A stretch of 64,000 nucleotides of DNA, taken from the NCBI GenBank assembly GCA_947462335.1, contig OX381710.1:27497772-27561771 (forward strand), given 5' to 3'. A program made the translations under genes and the position numbers. Within the stretch, counting starts at the first letter, position 1. Each line of letters starts with the position of its first letter. A model generated the notes under the pieces. That model saw nothing but the letters and a program-made list of their open reading frames with translations, ran no database searches and was not told the origin of the DNA. Shown here piece by piece: positions 7,201-63,300 of this stretch. Origin of the DNA: Harmothoe impar (lineage: Eukaryota > Annelida > Polychaeta > Phyllodocida > Polynoidae).

Positions 7201-8240
7201 CCCACTCACTATGTATGGGTGGTGAGCAGTGGTGGGCCCTTGCTGAGCAGCTCCGGTGCAGGAGAGAGCTGCTCTCTGTGCCCGCTGGCTGGAGCAGGCC
7301 GCTGCTCACTGCTGTTGGCACCCTAAGTCGGCTGCCCGCCCGCTCTGCATCTCCACTCCTATCTCCACACTACCACACCGCCCCACCCCGCTCCACATTG
7401 TGAGCTGCTCGGCGAGCAGTACGTACGTACGCCATTGACAATTCATCCATCCGGCGGACGGCGGCGGCTGGCGGTGGGACGGGCACGGAGAGAGGAGCAG
7501 GAGGAGCAGAACCTTCATGTGACCATCCACCCATACGTGTATCACGCACACACACGCACACTGGAGGAGCACAGACCCTGGAGAAGGAGCAGGAGGAGCA
7601 TTACGTAGGCAACGTGTTGATCCTGGTGGCAGCCTGGGCAACCCCCTCAGCTAAGGTGATTAGGGGGCATCCGAGTTGCTCGGGCCTACTGTGACCAAGG
7701 CTTGGGTTATACTACTACTACTGCTGCTGCTACCCCCTGAGCTGCTCTATAGAGCATAGGAACGCCACTGGGCCCGAGCAAGCTGCTCGGCCGGTTGACG
7801 GGGAGGCCTCCACGGTGGCAGTGGTGATGGTGACGTTAGAGGGTGCTGTGTGAGCTGAGGTGAACAGATCAAACGTACGTAGGTTTACATGGCCTGCAGC
7901 AGGTGCTAGCTCACACCCGGCCCCCTCCCACCACCGCCCCTGTCACACAGGCTCCTACAGGTAGGTGCGCCACCGTAGACAGTGACACATCGACGCGGCT
8001 CACACTGGAGGATCTAATAACCCCCTCCCTTACACATCCACACCTTGTGTGACCCCTATTATCCGCCCTCCACCAGCCATCCACCCCCTAGATCCCCTTC
8101 AAACCAACATACAGACCTACAAGGCCAAGGATCAATTCAGGATCACTTTACTCTAACGCAGCGCTTGAGGGTTTGACACTGCCATCGATAAAAAAAGAGA
8201 CATCACCCATCACTCTACCCTAAAGGAAGGAGTTACTCAG
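7201..8240 (+). promoter_or_regulatory. GC-rich block with GAGC(A/T)GCTC motifs, ending in strong splice donors
   Basis: The GC-rich block contains four exact GAGC(A/T)GCTC 9-mers (7245, 7266, 7402, 7739) and the variant GAGTTGCTC (7673). Two good donor-like sites occur, CAG|GTAGGT at 7960/7961 and CAG|GTAAGC at 8240/8241. No long coding frame is convincing. The block may be a promoter plus non-coding first exon of an unannotated transcript. This is inference from composition and splice consensus only. Confidence 0.25.
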
Positions 8241-8800
8241 GTAAGCCACAGTTCCTGTGGATGTAGTGCTTTTCATGTACCTTGTAGCCTTTGTAGTTTC
8301 CCTTAACGCTGGCGGGACCACAGGATAAATTTAGGTGTCCTGATGGACTGCAATCATATTGCGGTGAGCTGCTTGCTCAGGTTTCTTACATTCTCATTTC
8401 AGCATTTCTTATCTGTGAGCTGCTCATTTCGTGTAACGTGTGTTTTGCTCAGAGGCTGGCCACACAGGAGGAAAAGGAGGAACCACAGACGTGCAGAGTG
8501 CACGTCCAGAGGGGTTGTCAATAATAGAGTGAGTGAGGAGTGAAGAGGGTGGGGTGGAGGGAAGGAGAGGGGTGGTGGCCCGTGAAGGTGGGAGTTCTTT
8601 CGGTGTGGCCCATATGGAATGCATGTGGCTGGAGGGAGGCTCCGCCGTACAGCACTGTCAGTCCCTCCATGGCTGCTGCAGCCTGTCTGTCAGTTCTTTA
8701 GATATGCATGTTAACCAGGTGGTACATTACCCTGGAGGCGTCCTGATCACCGTGGAGGAATGCTGCATCAATTACCACCGGTGCGTGCACTGTCAAAGGC

Positions 8801-8808
8801 TATAAAAG
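8801..8808 (+). promoter_or_regulatory. TATA box
   Basis: TATAAAAG in the context GGCTATAAAAGGGAGG is a close match to the metazoan TATA consensus. A start would be expected near 8830. No downstream coding exon is identified, so function is unproven. Confidence 0.3.
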
Positions 8809-11800
8809 GGAGGACTACCTGATGAAATGCATATCATTATCTGTCTAGTGGATCCTTTGACGGCCTGGAGGTGGTTAAGGGTGGTGGTTACCTTAGGTGC
8901 TGGAGGGGTTAAGGGGTGGGGGTTCTGGCGAAGTAAAGGTCAGAGGTGAACCATTAGCAGGTTTCTGTCTCACCAATCACCCTTCCAACGATCAGGAGGA
9001 ACGTAAAGCTGCCCGAAGGGGGCCCTGGGGATTGGAGCCCCTTAAAGTCCCTCTGTCTGGATGAGAACGAGTGGTGGGTAACAGGGGATACTCCAGGGTT
9101 CGTTCCATATTGATCCTATATCGTGCAGTTAGAGGGGAGGTGACCTGGGAGAGAAAAAGAAGAAAGTCATAGGGCTAAATGTCATGTCAGTGAGCACTAC
9201 GCTCTATCTCCCTTGCTCTTAAGCTGCCATCGGCCAATAATCCTACCGATTTGGACCAGATATCTTATAAATTAATTAAGATAATCAAGGAACTTTTTAG
9301 AATGTCTTTCCCAATCGTACCTCATTGCAATCTGCAAAATCAAATTATTTGAACTCTTCGCTTTGCCATCGGGAGGGAGATTACGATAGCTGATAAGAAA
9401 TGGGAGGAAGGGGCTATCTGGTTATATCTTCCAATACAGTTCCGACCAGCTGATAACTATTGACCCCATACAATACACACACCCTCCCCCCTTGCCCACC
9501 ATCCCCACAAATATTAAGCTTCCGCCTTGCCTTGCCCATCACCATCTACAAGACACCTAAGTGGACATCCAGTGAGGCAATCCATCTCATTTGCTACTGG
9601 ATGCCATCCTCATCAAAGCTAACCCTGTTAGTGCCATACTAATTTCTTCCCCGGCCTTATCCCCTCAGAAAAGGGGTCTATTGATCTTGTGGCCAAAACG
9701 AGACATCCCCTCCCCCTCCCACCTCGCATGCTGATCTCCCACCCTGCTGCTCAGGACGTTGGTGGTATGGAGGGGGAGAGGGCGATAACAAATCTTCAGT
9801 GGAGGAGCATGGGCAGGGATCTGCCAGCGGGCCTTTGGTGGGTGTGGGGAGAAAGCAAATAAGTACCACTCGCCTGACTGTAAAAAGTACTGTTCGTCAA
9901 TATCGTTACATGGGGATGTCTTTCTTGGGGCCGTGGGCATGCGTGTTACCTTGAAGATTTTAAGAGAGGCAGATGAGGGAGGAAGGGGATAGGGACGTGC
10001 GTAAAACCCCCACTGAGATCAATAGGGGAGCGCACGTAGTAGTAGCTTCATGGGATTGTGTCCCTGAGAGCCTCTGATCAATTAATGATGATACTCTCCG
10101 CATGGATGCCTCTTTAAATCCTGATCGGTCCTGGATGGTTCGCCCGAGGGTTGGAGGCAGGGATCGGATGCCCAAAGAAGCCTACAACACAAAACACTTT
10201 TAACTGTGTCTGTAAGCACATTCCCTTGTGGTAAGAATGTGGGTACTGCCCCAAGACTCTGCACTGTGTCTTTACAAGACTTGTTTTTTTTATGCATGGA
10301 CTCTTTCTCCAGGCTAGTGTCGCTCATTGGTTGCAGTTCTTTACATCTCGACTATATAGAGCCATTCAGGGCCTTACACCATATTCTGCTTTGTCATCTG
10401 CCGCTGCCTTGCAACCACGCCTTCTACTCTCTTTATCTATTCGTTTTTTTCATTCTTAGCCGTACGTTTTCTCAAGCGATTACAGGCCATTTTAAAAATC
10501 TTCTCTCAGATATTCCACCCCTGCTACACTCTAGACACAGGCGTTATTCTCAGAATAAATCACCTTTATTCTCTGGTCTGGACCAACTGTCTAGGAGGGC
10601 TAGTCTGGAGTAGGATTAAATGGTAATAAAGTACCTGTAGTGACGTCACAGAGGGCCCTTATTAGATAAGCAGTGACTGTTACTGATGTCTTGTATAGGG
10701 CCTGGAGCAGGACAAGCCACCCTCTAATGCTCTGGGGCATTACCTGGCCCTGTCTCCTGAAGGATGCTTTAGTCTTAAGACGTTAGCTGAATGGGGTTAA
10801 GATGATGTCCAGTGCTATACTATGCCACTCACTCTCTGCACTGCTAATGGTGGTGGAAACTGTTTATAGCCGGACGTCCACTGGCCCATTGAAGGGCTCT
10901 GTTGGCAGATCATTTGTTTTAAATAGTTTTACTTGGGTCAATATTACAATCGACAATAGAAATACAATGCACACAATATGCTACGTTTAATGCATTAATA
11001 TTAATTTTTGATCCATTACTATTCATTTTTACCCACATGAAATAATTAAAAGCAGGAAGATAGCCGACAAAACTCACTCCATTGGCCAATGGACGACCGG
11101 CTTATAGCGTTTCCCATCAGTAATTGTTTCATGAGTTGTGTGGGGTGTTCCAGGAATCTGTTAAGAGGCTTCCAATGATGCAACTGTAATTATCATTGGG
11201 AAGCATTAGCAACGGCGGAGCCATTGGCAAAACTAAAACACCACCACCCTGCTATCTTACAACAAAAACATACACTTTCGGAAATTACGAAACTGCGTTT
11301 TCCCGTAGACTAATTATCAGTTTGGGAATCCACTATGGGGACATAGCTATGTCCCTGAAGTACCAGCGAAGCTGATCAGATAAAACACATACACCAGCTG
11401 GACATCAGCGCCAGCTGTACCATTACACTATGGTAATTGAGTTGAAATTGGATGGGCTGGAAAAACAACCCGGCTGTCCTATTACAGGTGGTACAGTTAA
11501 GTGAATGCACCAACGCGTAAATGTCACAGAAAATGAAAATGGTACAGAAATACAGCCTTGCTCAAATTAAGTGCAGTCATTTCAAACAGCACAGTACAAG
11601 AAGCTGTAAAAAGTAATAACTTTCGTTATAAATACAAGTTTATTAACTGGAGCAACTATTATCGGAAACACATAATCACATAATAGGGACATCAGCAGCT
11701 GATCAGTTCATACGTCTTTGAAATGTCTGATGGCAAAAACAGTTCCGTGTACATGTAGTGACTAAGTGGTAGGATGTCATATACATCCCAGACGACTGTC

Positions 11801-12633
11801 ATACCCGTAAATCACCATACATGTACAGTCTATAATCATTACTAATATAGACAAGCCTTGACATTCAAATGGCTTCACACTCCCTCGGGTGTACTGCCAT
11901 ATAGAATAAATGGTATTGATTTCTTTCCCGCTTTAGATAAATGTATATTCATGTTATTAGCAGTATAGCGGATTAATCGAGACATGCAGAGTTAATTATT
12001 ATGACTAATTTAACAAAATGAGTCACTATTGTGGAGACTGCTCTGTGAGACTTTTTGATAATAATTATAATGGCTACTTTAACTGCTTCATGCTGAGCTG
12101 TCATTTTATATAGTACAACGATTATTGTGCACATGACCGCTGTAATTGCGGTAGAATACTCATAAATTTGGATTCTATTAGCCTAATGAATGGGCACGGA
12201 AATGTATTATCAATGTCCTTGATTTTCTAACGGGTCGGGCAATACATCTAATTGAATACTGACCACATGAGAATGCTTGCATAATGATATTTTAGAAGCC
12301 GCAATTGTACTCTGCAGTTGTTGACATAATGCTCATGGAAGTAAGAAACCTCTTGTCATGTGTCATATTGCCCTAGACGGATCATTGCCCTTACCCAAGA
12401 ATTGCTGAGGGTCTTCCATCAGAGTATTACACATATTTCCCATTTCCAGACTACTTATCTACATATTCCTGTTTTCTGATGGGGGGATGAGGGGCTCTCT
12501 GCATCCTTCACTGATGTTGTCCTCCACACCGCTGGTATACGGGTCAAGTTTATTGTCCTGTGGGCGCGGCCACTACCTAATCTGGTACTGGAGAGATAAG
12601 GACTGATAAGATATGTCACAATGGGTGTAAGTT
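8809..12633. other. Gene-free interval
   Basis: No supported gene. 8864-8935 has a twofold imperfect repeat of a CTGGAGG...GGTTAAGGG...TGG unit. 10.9-12.4 kb is AT-rich with many ATTA/TAAT cores and E-boxes (CAGCTG near 11395-11415), as in candidate developmental enhancers, but nothing decisive can be seen. Confidence 0.4.
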
Positions 12634-12904
12634 GTACACAGAGGCAAATATCAGAGTCACCCAATGTCGCCAATACTACTCTCATACAAGGGTCAGGCAC
12701 TGCTGGACTTTAATAGATGGGTCAAGGGCCATTCTAGTAAGGGTCAGGCTAGGCTGGACATTCAATAACAGGCTGGACCTTGGCAAACTTGCTTGAAAGT
12801 CTGGCCATGCTGGATCCTCATGCCATAGTCTGGCAATGCTGGACTCTTGGGAGAGTCTCTATCAGCCTGCACTCTGGGTGACTCTGATATTTGCCTCTGT
12901 GTAC
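12634..12904. repeat. 271-bp segment bounded by perfect 30-bp inverted repeats
   Basis: The arm at 12634-12663 (starting GTACACAGAGGCAAATATCA) is the exact reverse complement of 12875-12904 (ending TTTGCCTCTGTGTAC). The 211-bp spacer holds about four degenerate copies of a GGTCAGGC/CTGGCNATGCTGGAC unit (12687-12855). The termini are GTAC. No target-site duplication is evident outside the arms. This could be a small inverted-repeat transposon relic or a hairpin-forming element. Confidence 0.75.
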
Positions 12905-13576
12905 CCTGCAAATTCCACAGTTAATGTAGGGAATTATTTCATTGGTCTAAAAAAATAGTATATTCCACTAGTGCCCTATATAATCCCCGTGTGCTGCTGC
13001 GTTACAGTACAGTGCTAACCATGGAGCAGTTGACCTAGATCCGAGAGCAGCTCTACATAGTGGGACAGCCATCATGACAAATGGTATACGAGCCTTGGGT
13101 GCCACCTCTACTCGTTATCTCAGCTCCCGACCACCACCATGCTCAGCACCCGATAACACCACAAAACACTACATATAGCTCACCCCTCCTTGCCGTGCCC
13201 TGGAGGTGACCAGATCTATGTTAGGAGCGGTTCTGTGTGGGACAAGGCCAAAGGGGTATGGCAGGTGGCAGCGGTGGATGCATTAAGCGATTCTAGTCAG
13301 TCTAACCCTGGGATTCCCCCTTTGTAGCTATCTTTACTCTTGGTCAACTCATCACATTTCTGCCAGCAGTATATTTCCTTCCTATATTCCCTAGCTTTTA
13401 ACCTCTTAGTATAATCGTAAACTGGTCTGATTGTACTATTATTTATGATACCCGAGAATAAAGTAAGTACATGTAGTATATGTCCTGTCTGAGAACATCT
13501 CAAGATATGTGGCGGGGAGATGGTATCAAGATATGATGCCCTGTAAATGACTAAAGAGGGGTACGTTGATATGATA

Positions 13577-13881
13577 GGGCCAAATAAAAAAAAAGGTTTG
13601 TTTCAGGTTACCCGACCCTACCTACCAAAACAGGGCCGACCCTAGACATTTTTATGCAATTTTGAAAAAATATTTATATTTTGGGTCATTTTGGGGCTAT
13701 TTAAGGGTTGATCTGATAGTTCACGAGTCGAGGCGGTCGTCGGCGAGTCGGCATTGTAGTTCATGAGTCGATTTCTGGGTACTTTTCAGGCTAAAGTAAA
13801 AAAAAAAAAAAAAAAATCCGACCTACCTACCCTAGATTTTCAGACCATGTAACCTGAAACACACCTTCTTTTTTTTTGGCC
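13577..13881. mobile_element. MITE of about 305 bp with TA flanks (GAGTCG-core family)
   Basis: The left end reads GGCCAAATAAAAAAAAAGGT, then TTGTTTCAGGTTACCC. The reverse complement of the right end reads GGCCAAAAAAAAAGAAGGTG, then TGTTTCAGGTTACATGG. These are imperfect terminal inverted repeats of about 35 bp. TA dinucleotides flank both ends (13575-13576 and 13882-13883), as for Tc1/mariner-type insertions. The interior has repeated GAGTCG(A) words and a poly-A run (13798-13817). No transposase is present, so it is non-autonomous. Confidence 0.75.
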
Positions 13882-13919
13882 TAGGTGCAATTCTGTAACA
13901 TATATGAAACAGTGCATAT

Positions 13920-22094: not shown

Positions 22095-22875
22095 TGTAGT
22101 GAGTGATATACAGAAAGTGGTAATTTACCCCAGTTTCTGCCAGAGTTAACAGAGGGAAAGTGTTTGGCTCAGGCACTGTTATGGTGACTAGTTTCAGTAG
22201 TATATGAAAAGTGGTGTCGACTTCAGGCGTTGTCAGAAGGAAAAGCAAATCGAAACAAGTGTTTGGTTATACTGTCCGGGCGGGTAGTATGTGGAGAATG
22301 ATCTTTACTGCAGGTGCCTGGTAGTATATGGAAAGTGAGCTTGTCTTCAGGTGCTGTCAGAGTAAGTAGTACATATATGAAAAGTGGTGTTTAATTCAGA
22401 TACTGTCAGGGGGTGTAGTATATGGAAAGTGATGTTTGCTTCAAGCACTGTCAGAGCGAGTGGTATATGGAAAGTGGCGTTCACCTCAGGTGCTGTAAGA
22501 GTGAGTAGTTTATGGAAAGTGGTGTTTATCTCGGGTACTGTCAGTGTGAGTAGTATATGGAAAGTGGCGTTCACCTCAGGTGCTGTAAGAGTGAGTAGTT
22601 TATGGAAAGTGGTGTTTATATCAGGTGCTGTAAGAGTGAGTAGTATATGGAAAGTGGTGTTTATCTCAGGTACTGTCAGTGTGAGTAGTATATGGAAAGT
22701 GGTGTTTATCTCAGGTGCTGTAAGAGTGAGTAGTATATGGAAAGTGGTGTTTATCTCAGGTACTGTCAGTGTGAGTAGTATATGGAAAGTGATGTGTACT
22801 TCAGTTGCTGTCTCATAGATATGGTATATGAACAATTGCATTTCATTCAGGTACTATCAGAGTAGCTAGTGAGTT
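22095..22875. repeat. 45-bp minisatellite, about 17 copies
   Basis: The word TATGG(AAAGTG) recurs every 45 bp at 22466, 22511, 22556, 22601, 22646, 22691, 22736 and 22781. More diverged copies reach back to about 22097 and forward to about 22870. In the core, two unit types alternate (ending GCTGTAAGAGTGAG or ACTGTCAGTGTGAG), giving a 90-bp higher-order pattern. The period is divisible by 3 and the unit lacks stops in one frame on each strand, so long open frames arise on both strands. These are not genes. Confidence 0.95.
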
Positions 22876-32745: not shown

Positions 32746-33399
32746 GTTGTTCCCGTGGGAGGCTCCGAGGACAGCCATCTAATCCTTCTCTGGCGGACAT
32801 AGCAAGGTCTTCGGTTGTCTAATACCCTACAGTTGGGAATACACAGAGGTTGATTGTTTGCACAGTTGTTAGCTCACTCCCAAAGCCCCCTCAAAGTCTG
32901 TGTTCATCCTATGATTATTCATGCCCCTCCGAAGAGCCCTATTGAATTTTGAGTCACTTAGCTTCTGACGTTACTCTATTACATCCCATATACTGTGGAT
33001 GATGAGTATGAATATCAAACACATCCATATGGATCTTATCATTTCCACCAGATAAGGCTCTTATATGGCAACACAGTGTGGGTCCTTACTAGGTCCTATA
33101 GGTAGAGTGGGGGCCTGTCTATATGCGTGCAGTAGTACTACTGTATCGTCAAGCTCTCCTTCATTTGAACCCCTACCCCCTACCCCACACCCAATTCCCC
33201 ATACCTTTCATATACAGCCCTCCCTCCCCGTGGAGGACAGTTTCGTGCAGACCTGCTTATCCTTGGCCCCTGATGCCGACCAAAAATCAATAGAGCATCA
33301 TGCCGGCCTCTCCGTGGTGAATGTCTACCAATATTGTAAATGACACGTGATTGAGACCCATGAGGGGCTCACCAGGGGCCTGAGCTACTCCGCTCACTG

Positions 33400-35745: not shown

Positions 35746-35747
35746 TA

Positions 35748-36337: not shown

Positions 36338-36363
36338 GAGCAGCTCACCACTCTGAGCTGCTC
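36338..36363. promoter_or_regulatory. Paired GAGC(A/T)GCTC motifs
   Basis: GAGCAGCTC (36338-36346) and GAGCTGCTC (36355-36363) are 8 bp apart, followed by CTGCTCAGC at 36368. This is the tightest pair of the motif between the clusters. Confidence 0.4.
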
Positions 36364-37171
36364 AGATCTGCTCAGCACGCCCCGGGCTCTGCACAGCACC
36401 CTCTCTGTAATCACGTACACCAGGTACCTACAGCAGTAGCTGTACCAGCTTGAGTGAGTTACTCTCAATCGTACACTGTTTGAAAATATCTCCAGTCTCT
36501 CAAAACTTAATTTGTTTTTGTGGATACCCTTTACAGTGTAAAACCATGGAATTACACAAGTATATTGCACAGATCCATAGTAAAACCCACTCCAGAGTCT
36601 GTTGTGCATGTTTCCAATGGAAATGCATTCCATGGTATGCTCTGTATATATATACATGTATTTGCCATTGTATCTTATATCATAAGCCTGCTAATCCTTA
36701 CATGACCAAACTTATAATGTCTTTGAACATTCACCAATGTCGTTACAGATACTGAATAAATGTATAAACACGAGATTCGACAGCAAATGTATAATCAATG
36801 TCAACAATCTTCGGAATCTAGACAACCTTAAAGCACTATACGTTAAAAGCGATTGTTTTCTACTCTTTTTCATCGTAATGATATTGTTCAGATCTTTATG
36901 GCTAATTAAATCCAGAAAATTGGTCTGTAGAATGCACTAACTGCAGGGCAGGGTGTATGGCGGCTGATTAGACAGCCCCCGTGTCAAACAGCAGCCTCGT
37001 TGTTACCAATTAGCTGCTGCAGCTGGCATGTGGGGTCGGGGCCTGACAGCGACGGGCCATGGTGGCAACGCACCTGCATTCCTATATGTAGCCACTTTGG
37101 AAGTAATATGCCATTCAGGGCTTGTACTTTGGATCACCGGCAACATGTTTTGAAACATGTCTGTTTGTCGG

Positions 37172-37457: not shown

Positions 37458-38285
37458 GAGTTGCTCCTGCCTTGTATAAGCCGACCTGTGCTGGGGAGGG
37501 CTGTCTGAGCTAACCCGGGATTGATGGTCAGCCACACGTCCACCAGCAGCACTGTCCTATGCAGCAGAGCAGCTCCCCCATACCTCCCCCCACCAAGCAG
37601 TCAGGGGGAGCAGCTCTTTCCTGCTCGCCGCGTGCAACAGTCCTACAGCCATCCTAGTCCCTATAACTACTTACTGCGCCATCCCATCCACCCATTCCCC
37701 TGCTCTATACTATATAGACCTCAGAGGTACGAGCAGCAATAGCCGCCGAGTGCAAGCACCTCAAGGCTAAGGTGTCACTGACAGAGCAGCTTGAGAAGCT
37801 CACGAGTAGGTCCAAATGCTCCCCGAGGGCAAGGGATGGCCATTTCTAGGACCTCTCAGAGTCGCAGATGCACCAACGAGCAAATAGTATCTATAATGAA
37901 GCCTGCAGTGTGGGGTGTGTGCACAACGCCCCAATGGAGGGTCTGGGTGAAGACGGACCGGTGGGTATTAGGTTCTAGAAGCAGCCACAGGTACCCCATG
38001 CCCCGTATCTGCCTTATCTAGAGCAGCTCAATGAACCCCCTCCCCACCTTAGCAACAGCGCCTCTCCTACACACCTGATGATCCGCGCCCCATGTCTCAG
38101 TGGGAGGAGCTGCTCTCAGTTCTCGCTGACAGCGCCATCCGCGCCAAGATCTGACATCATTCAGATTAGGATCGACTCGACTAGTGCTCACTACTGCCAC
38201 AACACCTCTGCTTGTGCAGTCCCTTCCACTAGCCCCCACAGGAGCAGCCTGATACTGATTGTTGACTGAGCTGCTCATTATAGAG
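37458..38285 (+). promoter_or_regulatory. GC-rich block with five GAGC(A/T)GCTC motifs and a terminal splice donor
   Basis: Exact 9-mers occur at 37567, 37608, 38021, 38107 and 38268, and the variant GAGTTGCTC at 37458. The last motif is followed 9 bp later by a donor-like AGAG|GTAAGG (38285/38286). Composition and arrangement resemble the block at 7.2-8.24 kb. A 5' non-coding exon is possible; no protein is recognised. Confidence 0.25.
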
Positions 38286-38659
38286 GTAAGGGAATAGGTA
38301 GCAGTCCTTATAATATAGCAGTGAGAGCACCTCTCAGGCAGAGACCCACCTACACTGTGTATATGCAAGGGTATAGGAAGAAAGGGACGAGTGGGTGGGG
38401 GTGCTCTGGAGAAGTAGTGGGGTGGAAAATGATGAAAACCAGTCGACACACAAAGAAAACACACTACTCGTCCACATCTGTCGCTGGGGGTGAGTTGCTC
38501 CCGTTTAGCAGACCTGCCCTGGAGGAGGCCCAGTGCATTAACAACATGAGGGGGCACTCCCATGGATTATGGCCCCGACCCTGAGACGCCTCCGGAGCAA
38601 GGGCCCTGGAGAAGGAACACAGGAGAAGGAGGAGCAGTCTGAAGAGGAGAACTCCAGGG

Positions 38660-39420
38660 CTGCTGAAACGGCGGCAGTGCTTTCAACAAGTAATATGACA
38701 TATTGAAGCACATGCTGGTCCGAGGACAACCGGCTAAAGGTCGTGTCACCTGACCCAATTATGATATACACTGAGGGCGTAGACGAGCACAAAGCCGGAT
38801 AGTCGTACGTTAGTGCTGTGTGCCTTTGTAATCAATGGTACCAATCTATGTGTATACTCAGTGGACTTTGAGTAACTAACATGAGTAACTAACCAAGTGT
38901 CCAGTCAAAGGATACTAGACAGCTCATGTCCCAACCTGTCGGATTACCAATACCTCATTACTACTAACCTTGACTACAGCAGCGTTAAATCTAATTGATG
39001 TGTCTTAGTTGTATCACACATCACACTCTGCCTCCTACCCAAGGACAGAATGTAGGTCGGGCCTACGTTTATAGTGCAGTAGGTCAACTGTCAACACACT
39101 TCCAAACTTGCTGACCACCGCTATGTGAGGGCAACCCTATTTCAAATCTATGCAACATTTTGCAGGCACTCAATGGAGCAGCAGAGCGGAGCATACATAA
39201 AGGAAACTTCAGACACTCAGACTGCATGTTGCCTCAACTTCTAACAAGCTGCTATCCCACACAATCAGCGATGTCCCTACATCCTATAGCCAAAACAGTA
39301 ACCACCCAACCGCACCATCCCATAGCCTGCACTACTAAACTACCCGTCCCACTTTCCCTATACTGCTAGCTACAGCACCCCGCCAGGGAGAGGCAGCAGC
39401 GGAGAGCACCAGTACAGGAG
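38660..39420 (+). repeat. 761-bp tandem duplication, copy 1
   Basis: The unit starts CTGCTGAAACGGCGG and ends CACCAGTACAGGAG. It is followed immediately by an apparently identical second copy. Small open frames repeat exactly in both copies. The unit itself holds the direct repeat GAGTAACTAAC. The junctions show only about 1 bp of ambiguity. Confidence 0.95.
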
Positions 39421-40181
39421 CTGCTGAAACGGCGGCAGTGCTTTCAACAAGTAATATGACATATTGAAGCACATGCTGGTCCGAGGACAACCGGCTAAAG
39501 GTCGTGTCACCTGACCCAATTATGATATACACTGAGGGCGTAGACGAGCACAAAGCCGGATAGTCGTACGTTAGTGCTGTGTGCCTTTGTAATCAATGGT
39601 ACCAATCTATGTGTATACTCAGTGGACTTTGAGTAACTAACATGAGTAACTAACCAAGTGTCCAGTCAAAGGATACTAGACAGCTCATGTCCCAACCTGT
39701 CGGATTACCAATACCTCATTACTACTAACCTTGACTACAGCAGCGTTAAATCTAATTGATGTGTCTTAGTTGTATCACACATCACACTCTGCCTCCTACC
39801 CAAGGACAGAATGTAGGTCGGGCCTACGTTTATAGTGCAGTAGGTCAACTGTCAACACACTTCCAAACTTGCTGACCACCGCTATGTGAGGGCAACCCTA
39901 TTTCAAATCTATGCAACATTTTGCAGGCACTCAATGGAGCAGCAGAGCGGAGCATACATAAAGGAAACTTCAGACACTCAGACTGCATGTTGCCTCAACT
40001 TCTAACAAGCTGCTATCCCACACAATCAGCGATGTCCCTACATCCTATAGCCAAAACAGTAACCACCCAACCGCACCATCCCATAGCCTGCACTACTAAA
40101 CTACCCGTCCCACTTTCCCTATACTGCTAGCTACAGCACCCCGCCAGGGAGAGGCAGCAGCGGAGAGCACCAGTACAGGAG
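39421..40181 (+). repeat. 761-bp tandem duplication, copy 2
   Basis: Base-by-base comparison with 38660-39420 over the parts I checked shows no difference. After 40181 the sequence departs (CCCGGGAGAGG instead of CTGCTGAAACGG). The copies are either extremely recent or an assembly artefact such as a collapsed or duplicated haplotype. Confidence 0.95.
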
Positions 40182-41179: not shown

Positions 41180-41182
41180 GTA

Positions 41183-43250
41183 AGTAGATTCGCCGTCTTA
41201 CTTCAGCGAGCAGGTCGACTGGGGCCGCGAGCTGCTCGACAAACTGCTCAATGGCGGTAATTGCGACTAGCAAGACGCCGCACCCCGGGCGGGCGAGGGG
41301 GAGGGGGTGCGGGTTATGATTTGTAATCCCTGGGTTATTTCTGCGCCGCTGGCAACCGCTCTGTATCGATCTGGCTGGCGACGGAAGGGTGTGGGTGTGT
41401 TGGGGTTGGGTGGATGTGTGGGTGGAAGAAGGGAGACGCAGGCTTTGTCCGGTGCTGGCGGGTTAGTGTAGCCGCTGAGGGTCCCTCCTCACCAAGAGCA
41501 ACTCGAGTGGGCCATGTACATGCAGAGTTACTGCTCTCTGAGTCGGTGTGAGTATATCGACGCCCTCCCCCTGCTATCCCATACCCCGGCCCCCTGGTGC
41601 ATCATCTTTCTCATAGACCTGCCATCCCAGTATATACAGGCATGTACAATGTATGAGTATGAGGCTACAGGAGCCGCCCCTACACTAGAGCAGCTCATAT
41701 ACAGCAGCAGCGTCTGTGACTGAGCAGTAAGAAGTATAGCCCCCCTACACTCACACCCACCTACCCACACCCAGCCAGCAGCATCCTCCCCAGGCCCCAG
41801 GCCAAGGTGGCGCAAGGAGGAACCCGAACCAGCCACTATGATATTACAAATAATCCATATTCATAGGGACCAGTCACCCCGAGAAATGCAGACCCCAGAT
41901 TCGATTACCCAGCGTCTCCACAATACCACAGGTCCTGCAGTATGGCCGGCAGCTGACCACTCCAACTCCAGTACCTGCCCATAGGAGGCTACCCCTCAGC
42001 TCTGCTCCGGCCGCTCCAGGGTATATTTCATTAAGAGAAGCGCGCGCTGATGGATGGGTATCTCTCCCTATTATCGCCCGCACTCCTTCCCTAATCCCCC
42101 CTCCTCATCCCGCCGCCCCCGGCACATTGTTCCCATGAGAAGTCCCGCAGCCAACACTTCCGGAGAAGTCATCCAATCAGCATCGAGCGTAATCCGGATA
42201 TGACGATTTGCAGCGCTGAAGCGAGGCTTCCCTCTGGTCAGAGCTTGCTTTGTCATCTGAGAGACATTGTACCTTACCCCCTCACTGCTCCTCTCCACGT
42301 CGCGACTTCCTCCCTTTAATAGTAACCCACTATTTATTAACACGCTCATGGGGATCCCCTCTCTTTGAGTGATTCAGATATTCAGACCTCACAATTATCA
42401 CATTTACTTGCTTGCAGCGATATGTTTATACTTTGCACCAACATTATTCAGCCCCTTCTATGATGTAAATAACATTACATTTTGCTCAATTCTTTTGTGA
42501 AATGAAAAGGTGAATCTCAACATGGACGTCATGTTCATCGATTTGATTTTGAACTTTTGAACGATTTTGGATGACTATATAGAAGAAACTAATCCACGAT
42601 CTCCCAAAAGAATGACTCATTGGTGTCTGGCCGTTACATATAATTATAGACCGTAACTAAAACAGTGCCAATATATTATTTTCGGTTCATTGGCAACCAC
42701 AATGATTGTATACTAATTATTGTAGGTAAGACACTGCTCGTTTTCCTGACAAGGATTGAGAGCCTGGTGCTCTGATATCCATGGGTTCATATTTTCTTGT
42801 CTGCCAGGTTTCTCACCCTCGGAAATCCATTACAATGACCCTATGTTTGACTATGTAAAAGAGGGAAACAAACGGAGCCCATCACATAAATTTACCTGAT
42901 GAGCACTCCCTGGTTGGCAATGTTCCACCTCCACCCATCCCGAGCTCCATAAAGGTCATTATGGGACTTTTGACTTTGCTTTAAAGTACAGTTTGGAGCA
43001 CCTCCCTCCCATTAGACCGAGCGGCACCTCTCTGATGCCATTGGAGGTCTCGTGCACGTACTAGCAGCTCTCTAATGGAGAACACCCTGAGGCATTATGC
43101 CCTTCAAGTTCAAAAGGGAGAGACAGGTCGTTAAAATACTAACCTGACTCTGCCACTTCCCACTGTCTACCTCTGTGTATACTAACTTGCAGACTTTGTA
43201 TTCTAAAAGCTGCAATAATGCCCAGTGTTTAATATAAATGTGGCAAGGTG
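41183..43250. other. Gene-free interval with GAGC(A/T)GCTC copies
   Basis: 9-mers occur at 41229 and 41688, plus the variant GAGCAACTC at 41496. The first 900 bp remain GC-rich; from 42.35 kb on the sequence is AT-rich. No gene is supported. Confidence 0.4.
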
Positions 43251-43295: not shown

Positions 43296-46200
43296 TCATG
43301 TCACACAGTATTAGAGGCTACGCCCAGGTTCAAGTGAATGTATTCAAATGTAGTAACCTAATATGTTGAGTCTATCTAGTGAGTAGTCTAGCTTTTTAAA
43401 CACTGCTAAAGGCAAATCAGACAAAGGTAATGCCATTAAAGGTGGCGCGTGTGTGACTGCTCCCCTGGTAAAAGGGTCAGCTGTTGGCAAAGTGGCGTTA
43501 CCTTTATAAAGGCTTCAACTATTGTAGAAGCATCGATATGTTATATCTCAACGCCAACGCTACCACTGAAATGTGCAGCTGTCTCTGTTGGATTACATTA
43601 TCTTTTATATGACCAGAACAACCCCCGTCTCGTAAAGCTGGCACTCTGTAGGGTGAATCGTAGGCCCATAGCATCATATATAATATAGGTGTGTAATGCC
43701 ATGGTCTAGTCTATAGGCCATTACATGCCATATCATCATCACACACAAGCTGTTGGTATGAATTACAAATTACTACATTACTTATATCACCGTCACCGAC
43801 TAAGGCCTGCTCGTTTCCATAAGCCTACTAGATATCTTCAGCCATAAACAAGGCCATATGTTGAATCCAGCACCCCAGCCTGCATACATATGGTCGGATA
43901 TCCCTGAAGTTGACACTATACTGCGATGTATAGTGGCAAGCCATACATAGTCACCCCGACTAGGTCTAGTTATTATTTCATACGGTTTCTGTGGAATTAA
44001 CAGTGGCAAGGCAGGTGCACGGCCATTGATTTCTGTCTCATTAGGCTTAAACATGGGAGGGTGCCGCTGTCAATACCCACCCACATGTTGGAGTGAGCTG
44101 CTCGGAGATGCTCTGGGCTGAGCATTCAGGCCACGTTCTGTGGGCGGGAGGAGCTACTAAAAACAACCGGTGTGGATGTCACTGCTTCCAACACCTAGAC
44201 TGCCAATTTATTTGTTTGCACGAACCTAGGTGCGGGTGTGATATGTCATTACGCCTATTGTCTCCCCTTGCCTCCGCCGACGTAGTGGGTTAATCGATGT
44301 GGAAATTATCTGGTAGTCTCTAATCGATATGACCCTGGGGGCCTTTACAGGGTTTTCAGTATCTCACCTCTTCAGGAAGTCTGTGTGGATGCAATCTATA
44401 CGGCATAAAAGTCCTTTTACAATATGTATTTAGTATCTAGACTAAGATGACAGCCTAATGCTCAGAATTAAACAGATTAGTTCCGACTCAGTCTCACACA
44501 ACCTAATGTTTTAACTTATATAATTGTTTGACCTCTCATATACACTGCAAGCCTGTTTGACTTTATACGACGATATCTATGTGTTTTTGTGCTCCATGCC
44601 CAACTATTGTAAGGAAGCACTGAAGTATGGACATGTATATAATAAGTGTGTATGGACTTACCAATTTCTCTCTCTATATCTGTGTCTCCATAAAATGCAC
44701 AGACATATAAGCTACCAAATGTCAACATGATTCAGATGCCCTATATATTCCACCTGGGGTCCAACAATAGCCACACATGGATATGATTGTCTCTTAGAGG
44801 TCTCAGCCATTGCAGTTGTCCCCATTTCCTATGTCAACCTGACGGAAACAGGCTTGAAATAAAAGAGTGAGAAGAATGAAATCGCTCCCGAAACGTGTCA
44901 CGAATGTTAAAAGGGTCGGAACCGGCTGCGTTTCCGTGATCGATGGGCCGGGCGTATCTGGGATCTGATCTACATTGTCCTGAAGGGGACAAAACGTCGA
45001 AGTCGCTCCGAGCCGGGCCTTGAGACGCTCATAGTCGCAGTGAGTCGGTGGAGAGCAGCTCAGGGGGCGGTGGCCTAGCCAGGGGCTCAGTTTCAGCAGG
45101 GAATCAGAGGGGAAGGAGATCGTCCTCCCGCTTCTTGAACATGAAGCATCGGCGATGACGGAAGAGCGTTGACGCTGATCAGCCAAGCACGAGGGAGATA
45201 AGTTCACGATGGGAACTTACATCAAAAACTACTCTCCCACCTTCCCCTCCACCCCAAAGGTTCTTCACCACCCCTGGAGATCTCCCTGCCTCCTCTTTCC
45301 CTCTTCCACACTCCCTTTCTTCTCTTTACCACTCGTTTCGCTGACCTAGCTGGACTATTTTGCACGCTAGTACTCTCCACCACATACCATACTTATTTGT
45401 TACTGACAATGCTCCATGAGTCGGACATATACCTTGAGTCGGACCCTTGCATTTTATTAATTCAAGAATGCTATGGCTTCTATAATGTGAGCTCACGAGT
45501 ACATGATAAGTGTGATCCTCAGCAAAAGAAGAACAATTATGGGACTTACTATGCACGTATGACATGTGTCCGACTCAATATACATACATGTGTGTCCGAT
45601 CCGTGTTGAATCTACCCTAAAGCATACTCATACCTTGAGATGTTGGCGAATGCCACTAGGCCTATTTGTTCCAGTGTTTTAATGCATAGCCGAAAGACTC
45701 CCCAACCCCCCCCCCCCCCCCATATGGAGCTGGTGAGGTCATTTGTGACGTCCATTGTTTGAAACCCCTATTGTATATGACGGGAAGAGGGGTTCAGTTT
45801 ACCATTTTGCTATTCTTATCCCTCTGCTGTCTTGGGTTTCGGATACGCCATCTCCCAGGGTCTAACGGGGGCGTGGTATACTGGTGCCGATAATAGATAA
45901 CGTTTGTCTCAAGGAAATTGACTTGGTCAGATAGCACCAGTGACCAGAGCCACAACGATGTCCCCAATGGCCAGTAAGGAAATTTTAGGAGGTCGTGTAG
46001 AGGGTTTGATGCCCGCCTCTTCTCACTATACCCCATAGACCAGGGGGCCCCCCAGGCTCTGCCACTGTTGCTGATGCTACCCGATGTTAAGCAGCCCCAC
46101 CCACACCGATGTAGCAATTTACTGCAAGTAGCCAGGGCTGGATGGAATCTGCACTCCTCTCCCCTAAAGAGTGAGCTACTATAATTATAATGTATCTTAC

Positions 46201-47878: not shown

Positions 47879-48065
47879 CGTTCAGAGCATGCTAAGAAAA
47901 CGAGCGAGAAAGAACAGACGCCCACAAAAACCCTTCACCAGCATGTCAGACGCTTATGATAAATCAGATAAAAAGTCGTCAAATCAACGCATGCATCATC
48001 ATCGGTCAAAAGGGCGCCGGGTTGGCTGTCGTTATAGGCGCCGCATTTGTATGTAGGAGCAGCTC

Positions 48066-53255: not shown

Positions 53256-53879
53256 TCGTGTATACAAAGCGTCTGGATCATAACGGGATCGAACAGGCCT
53301 TGTTAGATCCGCCGCCTGTAGCATACCATGTCCACAGGACCAGGAGGAGATGCTGGAGGATCATCGGGGCAGACCCTACTCCTGGTAAGTGATGACGCAG
53401 GGGGTGGGTAGTGAGGTGGTGTATGCATGTGTGACAGGAAGAGCTGCGATAGAGAACTAGGATTACACTCCCTTGATAGCGATACCATCCCATGTTCCTG
53501 GGACGTGGAGTGTAGGTACAGACTCATCATACTGATACTGACTCATATGGAAAACAAGGCAGAACTACTTCCAAATAATACTTGTACCCCCTCTCCCCTC
53601 ATATATAACGTCATGTTAACGTGCCAAGGAGTTGCTTTGTCCCATAACAAAAGTCTGCTGAATATGTTTGCATGCACAAAGTGGTGTCTGTTACACTGTG
53701 TGTTTACCGTATGAATAGAGTTACTCATGTGCGTGATCCTTTGTGTTTGAACAGGCATCACCTTTGGTTCTATTACAGCAAAAACCATAACACCATACAA
53801 GCCAATACCTAGCGTGATCCCTACGCTATAAAACAACATTATGGGGGCCCTTTAGAAAACATAGTCAAACGGACACCGA

Positions 53880-55320: not shown

Positions 55321-55358
55321 GTCATATCTGATTAAGTTCACCAAGGTCGTTGCAGATC

Positions 55359-58500: not shown

Positions 58501-58706
58501 TTGCCGGGACCTGATAAAGGGTGATTAGATTATCTAAAATGTAATTGATACTATCAATGTGGTTCATAATGACCACACAGTCAGTGACTCGATGATAAGG
58601 GCGAATAACTACAAAAAGAATACTTATTTGGGGGTTTAACAGCCAGTTGGACTGTCCGAGCCATTGTTTAATATGGAGTTGTCGCCATTGTTTGAAATTT
58701 CTTCCT
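55509..58706. other. Gene-poor interval
   Basis: No exon is convincing. A Gln-rich frame on the minus strand (57890-58070) starts after a fair acceptor (TTTATTGCCCACCAG) but lacks a good donor. Overlapping protein-like frames on both strands at 55.66-55.97 kb cancel each other. Confidence 0.35.
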
Positions 58707-58737
58707 GACCATGTAAGCTAAAACACATACTTTAAAA
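58707..58737. repeat. Relic of the GAGTCG-core MITE terminus
   Basis: GACCATGTAAGCTAAAACAC followed by ATACTTT resembles the right end of the 13577-13881 element (GACCATGTAACCTGAAACAC). The other end was not located. Confidence 0.35.
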
Positions 58738-59690
58738 ATTAAATGAAACTATTAAACAGTCACCAAGCAGTTTATTTCTAATTGCAATGCCCAAGTAGCC
58801 TGTTGTTAGTTTCACCTTGTTCGACTAATTAGTGCAACATGTAGATGTAGTTTAACATCATGTGTGCTTCACAGAAATGTACACATTTAGCTTATTTCCT
58901 GAGTTTATTAAGTCTGTTTAATGTACTACATGTATAGTCCTTATAAGAGTTCAGGTAATAATCATACATCTCCTTCGCTGTTGCCGTATTAAAATGGCTT
59001 GTACCTGCTGCATTGATATACAGGCAATTTACTGACCCTATTCTCCATATTTATCAGTTTCGCTTTGCCCTCTCTGAAATGAGGTCCTGGTGTATCGGAG
59101 GCGGGTGTTTCGTCTTTATAGAGGCTCTGGGTAGAGAAATTGAAATGAAAAGAGATAAATCACCTGCACAGAGATTGGTTGGATGCATTAAAATGCAGAA
59201 GTCTCCGCCCACAGAAGTAGCAGATATGATACTACCCTCAGAAAGAGAGATTAAAGGATATAGGGAGAGCACATATTCCACTGCCCAGACATAGGCTACA
59301 CTCTGATCTACTCACCCCTCTCTTTGTCCCATGATTATGTATTTCAGTTCCATGTAGGAAGAACTGCACTATGCTATGACTGATCGACAGTTCCAGGGCA
59401 CTTAATTCTGTCCTGTCATGAATCATCGATTAATCATACTTAAATCATATTTTATTAACGAACTTTCCCTCATTGACCTAATCGTAAAATCAGAGTGGAA
59501 CACGCCTTAACCACAACACTTTAGGGGCGATTTAACACAAGTCGTTCCTCATGTTCATAAAACGGGTAATGACTAACGGGACCGCCTGCTGACAGAACAA
59601 GTGGGTCAGGGTATAGGTTGATAGCAATCGACTCATAGGTGCTGAGCGAAACAACCAACTGTTTAGCCATAGGCTCATTCATGCTCAGCT
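58738..59690. other. Gene-free interval
   Basis: AT-rich sequence without supported features. Confidence 0.4.
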
Positions 59691-60320
59691 GGAGGGAGTA
59701 TAGGCTTGGAGCAGCTCAAGTTGTATGAGGGTAAACTCCGGCTCAGCAGGGGGGAATCTGACAAGGATGAGCTCACATTGGATAGAACAAACTCCTGCTT
59801 AGCTGGACTACGGTGGGTGTGGATGGGCTCAGATTGAGTTAGAACAAGCTCCTGCTCAGTTGGACTAAGATGGGGATGGATGAGCTCAGATTAGGACAAA
59901 CTCCTGCTCAGCTGGACTGAGGTTGGGGTGGATGAGCTCAGATTGTGTTGGAACAAACTCCTGCTCAGCTAAACTGAGCTGGGAATGGATGAGCTCAGAT
60001 TGGGTTAGGACAAACTCCTGCTCAGCTGTGGGGAATCTGGGCATGGGTGAGCTTATTAGATTGATTTAGGACAAACTCCTGCTCAGCATGATTGAAGTTG
60101 ACACGGAGCAGCACAGATATGAAGGACAAACTACTGCTCAACGGCGGGGACCTTGGATATGGATGAGGTCAGATTGTATGAGAACAAACTCCTGCTCATC
60201 TGGAGTAAGGGGCTGGGGGTGGCTAAAATCAGATCCTGCTCATCTGGCAGGAATTTGTGTGTGGCTGAGCTCAGATTGGGGGAAAGGTGGGCGTGGAGCG
60301 GCTTAGATTGGGTTCGGACA
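59691..60320 (+). repeat. Degenerate 57-bp minisatellite, about 10-11 copies
   Basis: AAACTCCTGCTCAGCTGG-like words recur at 59733, 59789, 59846, 59898, 59955, 60012, 60073, 60128 and 60186, and as a partial copy at 60225. Spacing is mostly 52-61 bp. Each unit also carries GGATGAGCTCAGATT. Copies are quite diverged, so the array is older than the 45-bp one. A GAGCAGCTC 9-mer sits at its left edge (59709). Confidence 0.9.
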
Positions 60321-63300
60321 GGATATAAGGGTTGAGCTTGGGTGTAGACTGTAGAAAAGTGAGTGATAGGTAGTCCAGGGGCAGGGGCGGTGTTAACGGG
60401 TAGATGTAGGTTTATAAACGATCTTTGGGTCAGGTTTAGAACAGCCCCTTCGAAATCAAGTAGGTCGGCTCATAAATGGGAGTGCCATGTCCCAAACTAA
60501 CATCAGTGACATCTGTACATACTTTGGCTATGTCTGTGGACCATAGGGCTATGGTTATAAATACGGGATAAATATACTGGTCAGCTGAATGGTGGCTTGG
60601 TTGGCAAATGCCACACAGATAAGGTCGAGAGTAGTCATTGAAATAGGGGGTTTCTGCGGGGGTTTCTGCAGGCTATCTCGAGAAACATACATAGATGACA
60701 CATAAATAGTAGTGTGTCCACCTAGATGGGACAACGATGGCATTAAATCTGAATTAACATGGAGGGATAGGGTATAGGGTTGTGCACCACCTCTGTGCAC
60801 CAACATGTGGGCCCAGGCTAAGACCCACGTTAGATGGGACGTCCCCGTGGGTGGTAACTAGCATGCGGCACGCTGACAGATTGATGACAAAATAATCACG
60901 GGGGGTGTAGGTGGCAGCACCGGCGGGGCCCCTTGTCACCCACCCAGATCTGAGTATAAATACAGGCAGGCCCAATGGCGCCCCGGGAGCGCCTACTGAA
61001 TAATGTAGGACCGCCTGGAGTCAGCAGGCTAGAGGAAAGGGCGGCGGGGGTCGGTAGGGGGAGTACATGTTGTGTAGGTGTGTGGGTGTTGGGGGGGGGG
61101 TGCAGGGATCAGCTATCTCTTTACACTTTGAGCGGGCCGGGACACATAATGAATTCAGCGGACGGATTCAGACTAAACCCTACGCCGCAATCCGCAGGCT
61201 CTGCATCTCCCTGAAGACCACTCTTCGCCTCCCACCTTCTTAAAAGGGTAAATCTAAAAGAGGCATAATATGTGCACGAGCAAAAATGTATACGTCTAGT
61301 AAAATGCGTAGGATTGCATACACACGGAATAGGCCAACAAGTCTGAGAAGGGCGGATGTACACTTCTAGTTATTTAGAATTCGTCCGGGGCCTATGGGAA
61401 TTCTATAGAATATTGAAGGTTTACGATCCCAGGCAATTCCATATGCATGACATGCAAAGGGACCTTACGCATTTCTTCCACTGCATTTGCAACCACGTCG
61501 TCCCTGCTGGATTTTCTGCATACCTAAGCTTAAACCAACACCAACAAAAGAATTTCCTTTTTAAATGCACTCTATCGACATACATATTCGACGCAGTGCA
61601 CCTGATGTGCAGTTCTAGAAGCAATGTCTACCATGAGGCAGACTATTCAGGATGTGGATAGATTAATAGAACAGAGAGCACAGTGATTATAAGAAACCTT
61701 CCTGGAAACAACAGCACGTATACCAATGGTATTACTGTTGTGATATATTTTATATATGAGACTGTGTTATAGCTCCTCATAACACAAGCAATTCGGACCC
61801 CGTTCTATTACCTTTATGTGAATCTAGATATGCTGACCCGTGTGCATTCTGAGAGAGAGTCTATGTGATGTTGCTAAGAGAGTGAGCAACTCGAGCTGTA
61901 AATGTACTGCTCACCCCAGGGACCCCTTTTGCTCCTGTTATGAAGACAACGGGCTGCCTCAGCCTCCACCAGGTCTTAAAGCTGAAAGGGAAATGGAATG
62001 TAAGCAGCTCTATATGGCTTTTATCCATATTTTATCATTCTCATATGTAGTCCCAGGATACCGCGCGGTATGTTCCACATAACAGGTTTATGTTTTGAGA
62101 GCTGCAATACCATTGCCTTTAGTATTCCCTCCTTGTATTCGTTATAATGAAAAACTGATGGCATTGGGTACAAAAAGCATCTACTGGGTATTGTTGCTGT
62201 CTAGTATAATCTCCAGGGTCTCGAATAAGCACCGGTGTGGAATAAGCGCACGAGAGTAGAGGGGTACAATAGTGTAGCATTTGTAGCTCTTGGACAGTCA
62301 CTGGTCTCATTGGTATTTAAAAAGTTGATCTCGTAGAATTAAAAAGCGTCCAGACACTCACAAGGTAGTACAATATTTTAAAGGCAGTATAAGCTGGTTA
62401 TCTACTGGCCTATAGAATTTCTTATGTCTGTCCGATTTTTTAAATTTGAATTGTTTTATTCGGGTCAATAATTACAATTATTAATAGGAATGAAATAAAC
62501 GTAGCATATATGCGAGTTGCAGTCATATTAAAAATTGTATCATGTTCCCAAATAAAACTGTTCAAAATAAAGAATGAGCACACAAACCTGTTCCAGCAGG
62601 CTAGCAGACGACTGGCTCTAAGGCTCAAACAACGTATAGGGCAAGCCATATTCGATCACGTAAGCCAACCTTCGGCTAGGACCCAGAGGCAATGAGGCGA
62701 TGGGAGACATCCAGAGGGCCAAACATGACAGGAATGAAGGGAGATGGTGCTCGAGCAACAGCTGAGAAATACAAGGGGATGTGCAAATAGACAAAGTGAG
62801 GAGGTAAGGCATTGTATGCTGAACAGCACACACATATACCCCTTTACCACAGACGAAAAGGACGGGACAATGGGACAATGGGAGACTGATAAAACTAGAC
62901 AGCAAGTACCATACACCGTGGGAGGAGGTAAAGCTGGAATATATATATACATTATTTACTGCATAGTCTTTACACCTTGAGCAGAGCTCTAGATAAAACA
63001 TTTTCAACTCAAGTAAATGTCTAACCCATACCATCAAAAACAGAGATTTAATTGTTGCAGTGTGAGGTAGCCTGCTATTTTTCGACAGAGTTTCTGATAT
63101 CTACCAGACAGGTGTATCCCAGTGTAAAGGGCGGAGGACAGTTAATTGGGCGGGGAGCATTTTGATGGGCGAGGAGCAAACCAGTAGGCCATGAACAGCT
63201 AGGAACAGTCCAACGGATGAGGGAGCAGCTCGCCAACCGTACCTAAAGTAGGCTTTCCCAGGGAGGTAACTAATCAAACGGGGTCGGGCTGCGCTTCCTA

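What the first reader, a model, noticed from the sequence alone, without database searches (positions are those of the whole stretch)
7245..63231. Over-represented near-palindromic 9-mer GAGC(A/T)GCTC in clusters
Exact GAGCAGCTC/GAGCTGCTC (one motif on two strands) starts at 7245, 7266, 7402, 7739, 8417, 36338, 36355, 37567, 37608, 38021, 38107, 38268, 41229, 41688, 44095, 45053, 48057, 59709 and 63223: 19 copies, where about 0.5 would be expected by chance in 64 kb at equal base frequencies. There are none between 8.4 and 36.3 kb. The variant GAGCAACTC/GAGTTGCTC adds 7673, 37458, 38492, 41496 and 61884. Copies sit in unrelated flanks, mostly in GC-rich patches that resemble promoters, so this is not a simple copied repeat. 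The symmetric half-sites GAGC/GCTC with a single central A/T suggest binding by a dimeric factor. The protein is unknown.
Basis: partly seen in the sequence, partly recalled or inferred. Interest (0 to 1): 0.75.

Follow-up and report, generated by a model that had tools for sequence, protein, structure and literature searches.

The report
Nine-base palindrome iterated across worm genome
A nine-letter near-palindrome, probably a landing site for an unknown DNA-binding protein, occurs about nine times more often than a matched control across the genome of a marine scale worm, gathers in clusters and sits at the heart of many short tandem repeats; its partner protein and its purpose are not known.

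Summary
GAGCWGCTC occurs 20 times in the window (19 listed, plus 13045) against 0.35 in shuffles, and is its most over-represented 9-mer after masking. The genome is the scale worm Harmothoe impar, chromosome 7. Genome-wide there are 92,667 copies, against 10,500 for a word with identical dinucleotides.

Copies cluster: 48 of the first 99 gaps on chromosome 1 are under 1 kb (5.3 expected; control 0 of 49). No window copy lies in a repeat shared with about 165 kb of other loci. The change GAGC to GAGT is tolerated on one or both sides. Elsewhere the word sits in minisatellites with otherwise unrelated units.

Best reading: a binding site for an unidentified, probably dimeric protein, multiplied locally by tandem duplication anchored on the site. 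Parallels: cyanobacterial HIP1 and motif-duplicating insertions at human germline binding sites. Protein, germline role and function are inferred. 'Promoter-like' is not supported: no CpG excess, and crude scans found no host gene. Two planned whole-genome counts did not complete (server busy).

The parts
7245..7253 (+). GAGCAGCTC copy (head-to-head with 7266)
7266..7274 (-). GAGCTGCTC on + (A-centred on -)
7402..7410 (-). GAGCTGCTC on +
7673..7681 (-). hybrid variant GAGTTGCTC/GAGCAACTC
7739..7747 (-). GAGCTGCTC on +
8230..8238 (.). GAGTTACTC, both half-sites GAGT
8417..8425 (-). GAGCTGCTC on +
13045..13053 (+).
33382..33390 (.). hybrid variant of the GAGTWGCTC class
36338..36346 (+). GAGCAGCTC copy (head-to-head with 36355)
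36355..36363 (-). GAGCTGCTC on +
36456..36464 (.). GAGTTACTC, both half-sites GAGT
37458..37466 (-). hybrid variant GAGTTGCTC/GAGCAACTC
37567..37575 (+). GAGCAGCTC copy
37608..37616 (+). GAGCAGCTC copy
38021..38029 (+). GAGCAGCTC copy
38107..38115 (-). GAGCTGCTC on +
38268..38276 (-). GAGCTGCTC on +
38492..38500 (-). hybrid variant GAGTTGCTC/GAGCAACTC
41229..41237 (-). GAGCTGCTC on +
41496..41504 (+). hybrid variant GAGCAACTC
41688..41696 (+). GAGCAGCTC copy
44095..44103 (-). GAGCTGCTC on +
45053..45061 (+). GAGCAGCTC copy
48057..48065 (+). GAGCAGCTC copy
53718..53726 (.). GAGTTACTC, both half-sites GAGT
59709..59717 (+). GAGCAGCTC copy, just upstream of a 57-bp tandem array (59765-60087)
61884..61892 (.). 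hybrid variant GAGCAACTC/GAGTTGCTC
63223..63231 (+). GAGCAGCTC copy

Best explanation
GAGCWGCTC (fuller consensus near TGAGYWRCTCA, near-palindromic) is the binding site of an unidentified sequence-specific protein of the scale worm, most likely a dimer with half-site (T)GAGY. The site is kept or regained as an exact word, and it multiplies locally because short tandem duplications are anchored on it, probably because the protein is bound there in germline DNA. The result is dispersed sites, homotypic clusters such as those at 7.2-8.4 kb and 36.3-45 kb of the window, and minisatellites with unrelated units that share only this word. Shown here: exact-word excess, clustering, tolerance pattern, same-orientation excess of close pairs, and arrays with unrelated units. 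Inferred: that a protein binds, that it is a dimer, that it acts in the germline, and what it does for the animal.
For: Excess over a word with identical dinucleotides: 92,667 against 10,500. The control is not clustered: 0 of 49 gaps under 1 kb, against 48 of 99 for the motif, both from first-listed places on chromosome 1. After merging copies closer than 1 kb there is still one motif locus per 37 kb against one per 167 kb for the control there. In window plus loci L001-L020 there are 79 exact sites (1.1 expected); each other single-mismatch word has 0 to 11. In the window only GAGC to GAGT (6 hybrids against 0.70; 3 double against 0.35) and, on one side, AAGC (6 against 0.83) are clearly raised. 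In eight paralogous units of L003/L004 the motif position holds the word in six, once with the centre flipped to T, and GAGCAACTC in two; it ties for the best-conserved 9-column window. Close pairs within 39 bp: 21,715 in all, only 1,879 and 2,052 in the two inverted arrangements, so same-orientation pairs dominate, as tandem duplication predicts. Inverted pairs, which simple tandem duplication does not make, are still far above the roughly 44 per arrangement expected at random (arithmetic). Arrays with unrelated units of 19 and 31 bp share the word. A 19-bp array has 0.018 substitutions per position in the motif and 0.056 in the spacer, over 80 of 83 units. Precedent: short insertions at human spermatogonial binding sites often duplicate the motif and build clusters (PMC8559717, abstract and passages read).
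Against: No protein, occupancy, expression or second-species data. In the 31-bp array L024 the motif varies more than the spacer (listing of units). None of 74 tandem arrays with period 9 or more in window plus 12 other loci holds the motif, so arrays are a minority product. The two closest pairs in the window are inverted, not tandem. Some copies elsewhere lie in local duplications or mobile elements (11 of 34), and part of the inverted pairs sit in repeated units. Signs against a symmetric dimer: A at +5 in 31 of 52 sites, T at -5 in 15 of 52 (duplicated loci not removed), though pair flanks did not repeat this (45 of 82 against 30 of 66, p 0.32); and in the cluster patches the half-word GAGCAG exceeds the exact copies (33, of which 14 exact) while CAGCTC hardly does (16, of which 14 exact; 4.0 expected each). 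The excess in the 12 other loci is modest (3 copies). A 9-fold genome-wide excess is far larger than regulatory sites usually show (recalled).
Confidence: 0.45

Rival explanations
1. Hitchhiking without binding: several mobile elements, local duplications and minisatellites happen to contain the word, and microhomology between copies drives slippage; no protein is involved.
For: 11 of 34 non-array sites elsewhere lie in sequence shared between fetched loci: a repeat with a tRNA-like T-arm (L015, L039, L044), an AT-rich repeat (L037, L042), and duplications (L028/L029, L033/L034, L035/L036). Same-orientation close pairs dominate.
Against: 0 of 20 window sites lie in shared repeats. Inverted close pairs are about forty times above random (arithmetic), though some lie in repeated units. 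The window's variants are concentrated in a few tolerated classes rather than spread as random decay would be. The comparison used only about 165 kb of other sequence, so rarer families could have been missed.
Confidence: 0.25
2. Ordinary cis-regulatory homotypic clusters kept by selection for a transcription factor, with no special mutational process.
For: Clusters, exact-word preference, variants within clusters; GC-richer surroundings.
Against: Genome-wide 9-fold excess, arrays with unrelated units, one of them beginning at what by eye is the end of a coding exon (L024/L025), and the strong same-orientation bias all point to a mutational component. Crude scans found no host gene near the window clusters.
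Confidence: 0.17
3. A chromosome-scale signal such as a meiotic recombination, pairing or chromatin-domain site, comparable in use to PRDM9 motifs or nematode pairing-centre motifs (both recalled).
For: Large genome-wide count, clustering and link to minisatellites.
Against: No map along chromosomes could be made (only first places are listed). Recombination hotspots tend to destroy their own motif (recalled). No candidate protein was sought.
Confidence: 0.1
4. Composition or coding artefact: GC-rich coding for Glu-Gln-Leu or Glu-Leu-Leu.
For: GAG CAG CTC and GAG CTG CTC are plausible codon triplets; one array seems to start in an exon (by eye).
Against: The synonymous GAGCAGCTG has 1 copy against 1.39 expected in the same sequence. 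The window clusters lie in sequence without exons that my scans could detect. The dinucleotide-matched control is nine times rarer.
Confidence: 0.03

Closest known systems
HIP1, highly iterated palindrome GCGATCGC of cyanobacteria (PMC4390886, abstract and passages)
   Same: A short palindrome far above expectation across a whole genome, with preferred flanking T/A in some genomes.
   Different: HIP1 is even-length, contains CpG, reaches 300-2700 per Mb with observed/expected 55-228 in most cyanobacteria outside one group, and goes with DNA methyltransferases. Here the word is odd-length without CpG, about 61 per Mb and about 9 times control, clustered, in an animal; no methyltransferase link was tested.
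Motif-duplicating insertions at germline-bound transcription factor sites in human (PMC8559717, abstract and passages)
   Same: Sites multiply by short tandem duplications that copy the motif and build homotypic clusters.
   Different: Shown there with polymorphism and chromatin data; here inferred from arrays and pair orientation in one assembly.
Core sequences shared by otherwise unrelated human minisatellites (Jeffreys; recalled)
   Same: Different arrays share one short core.
   Different: Here many copies are outside arrays (all 20 in the window), and the core is a near-palindrome.
Homotypic binding-site clusters in regulatory DNA (recalled)
   Same: Several exact and near-exact copies within a few kb.
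   Different: The genome-wide excess and array formation are greater than I know of for such clusters; no regulatory activity shown.

Membership tests
Highly iterated palindrome (HIP-like) | Short palindrome far above expectation genome-wide | tested here: met
   92,667 against 10,500 for dinucleotide-identical control
Highly iterated palindrome (HIP-like) | Associated orphan DNA methyltransferase for the word | not tested
   No search made; the word has no CpG
Highly iterated palindrome (HIP-like) | Cyanobacterial genome | tested here: not met
   Annelid Harmothoe impar: largest scaffold 124,100,948 bp equals C1, mitochondrial contig 15,367 bp
Homotypic transcription-factor cluster | Clustered exact and near-exact copies in unrelated flanks | tested here: met
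   Window; chromosome 1 first places:
Homotypic transcription-factor cluster | Protein occupancy or regulatory activity | not testable with these tools
   No chromatin or expression data
Homotypic transcription-factor cluster | Located at promoters or CpG-rich regulatory DNA | tested here: inconclusive
   GC raised but CpG ratio not; no host genes recognised in window by crude scans
Dispersed repeat family | Homologous flanks among copies | tested here: not met
   0 of 20 window sites in shared repeats; 11 of 34 elsewhere, in five different repeats or duplications (array loci L001-L004 and L023-L025 left out of the 34). Comparison limited to about 165 kb of other loci.
Minisatellite core | Unrelated arrays share the word | tested here: met
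   19- and 31-bp units; but 0 of 74 arrays in window plus 12 other loci hold it

The most novel reading that the evidence does not exclude
The word is a self-propagating binding site, an animal counterpart of HIP1: a germline DNA-binding protein of scale worms provokes short tandem duplications wherever it binds, so its own 9-base site has multiplied to about 90,000 copies, created clusters and founded minisatellites from any sequence, even an exon edge, that happened to contain it.
Probability: 0.2. Interest if true: 0.8.

Novelty: new variant of a known kind. Interest (0 to 1): 0.55.

Why it matters
Genome-wide over-representation of one short palindrome is known from bacteria, but I know of no animal case of this size (recall). 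In the paper library the motif strings as whole words gave 0 papers, and a search for papers holding at least five of six terms on annelids, over-represented motifs and minisatellites gave 0. If binding drives duplication of the bound site, two haplotypes and sister species can measure how fast binding sites and minisatellites are born. If not, the word is still a clear handle for finding a scale-worm DNA-binding protein.

Tried and rejected
Coding or composition artefact: rejected (GAGCAGCTG not raised; matched control). One repeat family: rejected for the window copies, within the limits of the loci held. CpG-island promoters: not supported. Helical phasing of pair spacing, suggested by the first spacings seen: for both arrangements together p about 0.03-0.06 uncorrected at periods 10.4-10.8, nothing for either alone, so dropped. 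Directional motif: 31 of 52 against 15 of 52, not repeated in pair flanks, left open. Tail-to-tail exclusion: 0 of 33 listed T..A pairs are closer than 17 bp against 8 of 46 A..T pairs, p 0.018; these are only first-listed places on chromosome 1, repeated array copies were thinned by hand, and the genome-wide count did not complete. tRNA genes: none in 7 of the 45 loci then held. Rfam at gathering thresholds: no match in the window. Pfam: 10 of the 54 ORFs scanned, one weak match below its cut-off (DUF5540); 2 ORFs of other loci, no match. C-terminal part of the 1165-aa ORF: no homologues at E 0.001 among the candidates scored. Papers. For PMC10541532 I read part 1 of 3 of the text; for PMC4390886 abstract and passages; for PMC8559717 abstract and passages; the others only as search listings.
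Full report
What the window is. The window is G000 C7:27,497,772-27,561,771 in a genome of 1,511,831,793 bases and 736 contigs. C1 is 124,100,948 bases and C8 83,397,641, C7 is 84,456,782, and the mitochondrial contig C736 is 15,367. The genome note of Harmothoe impar (PMC10541532, part 1 of 3 read) gives a longest scaffold of 124,100,948, an N50 of 83,397,641, chromosome 7 of 84.46 Mb and a mitochondrion of 15.37 kb; its total (1,512,319,410 bases, 861 scaffolds) is slightly larger than what is held here. COX1 from C736 is 98% identical to a Phyllodocida cluster and 91-93% to several named scale worms, and equally close to some other worms of that order. So this is chromosome 7 of the scale worm H. 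impar.

The observation. GAGCWGCTC occurs 20 times: the 19 listed and 13045. Shuffles give 0.35 on average and at most 2. After masking tandem arrays, the 5' GC-rich ORF and one copy of a duplication, the word is the top 9-mer of the window, 20 against 0.34; in 12 other loci it is not among the top 12. Eleven of 19 gaps are below 1 kb, against 5.1 for uniform placement.

Genome-wide. There are 92,667 copies. The tool's own control (the word read backwards) gives 2,458, but it contains CpG in a CpG-poor genome (window CpG ratio 0.57), so I used GCTCWGAGC, which has exactly the same dinucleotides: 10,500. The excess is therefore about ninefold. Of the first 100 places on chromosome 1, 48 of 99 gaps are below 1 kb (5.3 expected); of the first 50 control places, 0 of 49. 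With copies closer than 1 kb merged, there is one motif locus per 37 kb against one control locus per 167 kb, on that stretch only.

How sharp is it. In window plus loci L001-L020 there are 79 exact sites, while each other single-mismatch word has 0 to 11 copies, partly inside arrays. In the window alone, GAGT in place of GAGC is tolerated on one side (6 against 0.70) or on both (3 against 0.35), and AAGC on one side (6 against 0.83); the other single changes lie at about 1 to 3 times expectation. Centre C or G is absent (0 against 0.15, uninformative by itself). The codon-synonymous GAGCAGCTG has 1 copy against 1.39, which removes the coding explanation. In the cluster patches the half-word GAGCAG is enriched beyond the exact copies (33, of which 14 exact, against 4.0), while CAGCTC is not (16, of which 14 exact, against 4.0); this speaks for some asymmetry.

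Flanks. Over 52 non-array sites, A follows the word in 31 and T precedes it in 15 (duplicated loci were not removed). In flanks of inverted pairs the two sides are alike (45 of 82 and 30 of 66). The consensus is thus near TGAGYWRCTCA; whether it is truly symmetric is open. No window copy lies in sequence shared with the roughly 165 kb of other loci held at that time; elsewhere 11 of 34 do, in five different duplications or repeats (array loci left out).

Arrays and pairs. 21,715 pairs lie within 39 bp start to start; the two inverted arrangements give 1,879 and 2,052. By subtraction, which is approximate because I do not know how the tool counts overlapping pairs, some 17,800 are in the same orientation. 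That is the mark of tandem duplication. The same count for the swapped control did not complete. Arrays read here have 19-bp units (L023, about 84 copies) or 31-bp units (L024, L025), others 12/19/31 bp (L002) and 31 bp (L001), with spacers that are unrelated except between L024 and L025. Beside the arrays of L024 and L025 there is, by eye, a coding exon that resembles a membrane transporter, whose last codons supply GAGCTGCTC (not tested further). In L023 the motif varies less than the spacer (0.018 against 0.056 per position, 80 of 83 units), in L024 more. Of 74 arrays in window and 12 other loci none holds the motif, so arrays do not explain the dispersed copies. Inverted pairs, which simple tandem duplication does not create, are about forty times commoner than random placement would give (about 44 per arrangement, arithmetic), although some of these also sit inside repeated units.

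Conservation. In eight paralogous units of L003 and L004 the motif position holds the exact word in six (five with centre A, one with centre T) and GAGCAACTC in two, and ties for the best-conserved 9-column window. The units were cut around motif copies, which favours this result; the centre flip is the part that this does not explain.

Mechanism. The simplest account of exact-word excess, tolerance of GAGY half-sites, a centre free to be A or T, clusters in unrelated flanks, and arrays founded on the word in unrelated contexts is a binding site whose occupancy goes with local duplication. In humans, short insertions at binding sites active in spermatogonia are enriched and often duplicate the motif, building homotypic clusters (PMC8559717). 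Binding, dimerisation and germline occupancy are inferred here.

Comparison. HIP1 of cyanobacteria is the nearest known phenomenon by appearance (PMC4390886, passages): 300-2700 copies per Mb with observed/expected 55-228 in most strains outside one group, linked to methyltransferases. The scale-worm word is rarer (61 per Mb), clustered, and without a known enzyme. It looks like an iterated palindrome but is not shown to be maintained in the same way.

Limits. The whole genome could not be scanned by script; counts are those of the search tool. Lists show only first places on chromosome 1. The pair count for the control and the close tail-to-tail count did not complete. Host genes were sought only with crude scans. 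No second species, chromatin or expression data were available.

Noticed in passing
1-3500 (ORF) and upstream L048: 3' part of a GC-rich LTR retrotransposon: upstream frames carry, by eye, a gag zinc knuckle, reverse transcriptase and integrase; the window holds a further 1165-aa open frame with six copies of a 111-nt repeat and no Pfam match. Neither stretch contains a motif copy.
   Followed up: partly
38659-40180: Tandem duplication with a unit of about 761 bp, identical over at least the 300 nt reported; recent event or assembly artefact.
   Followed up: no
59765-60087: 57-bp tandem array rich in GAGCTCA and CTGCTCAG, beside the motif copy at 59709.
   Followed up: no
22283-22812: 45-bp tandem array of about 11 copies.
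   Followed up: no
L002, L003, L004, L009, L012, L013, L014, L045, L047: Dispersed palindromic repeat of about 50 bp centred on GAGTWACTC with homologous flanks, in L047 tandem at 31 and 42 bp; same frame as the motif with GAGT half-sites.
   Followed up: partly
L009:5797-5957, L016:9658-9818, L010:4497-4868, L015:7651-7823: Repeated element packed with promoter-like words: GTCACGTGAC, CCGGAAGT, GTTGCCATGGTAAC, TGACGTCAC, CCAATC, not all in each copy (factor associations recalled).
   Followed up: no
L015:708, L039, L044: Repeat carrying the motif shortly before GGGTTCGAACCC, like a tRNA T-arm; ARAGORN finds no tRNA gene there.
   Followed up: partly
L022 (C466:5071-9402): A second COX1 in the assembly that looks by eye like a parasitic flatworm's; likely a contaminant contig.
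   Followed up: no
L049:309, 338, 455: Three further motif copies just right of the window.
   Followed up: no
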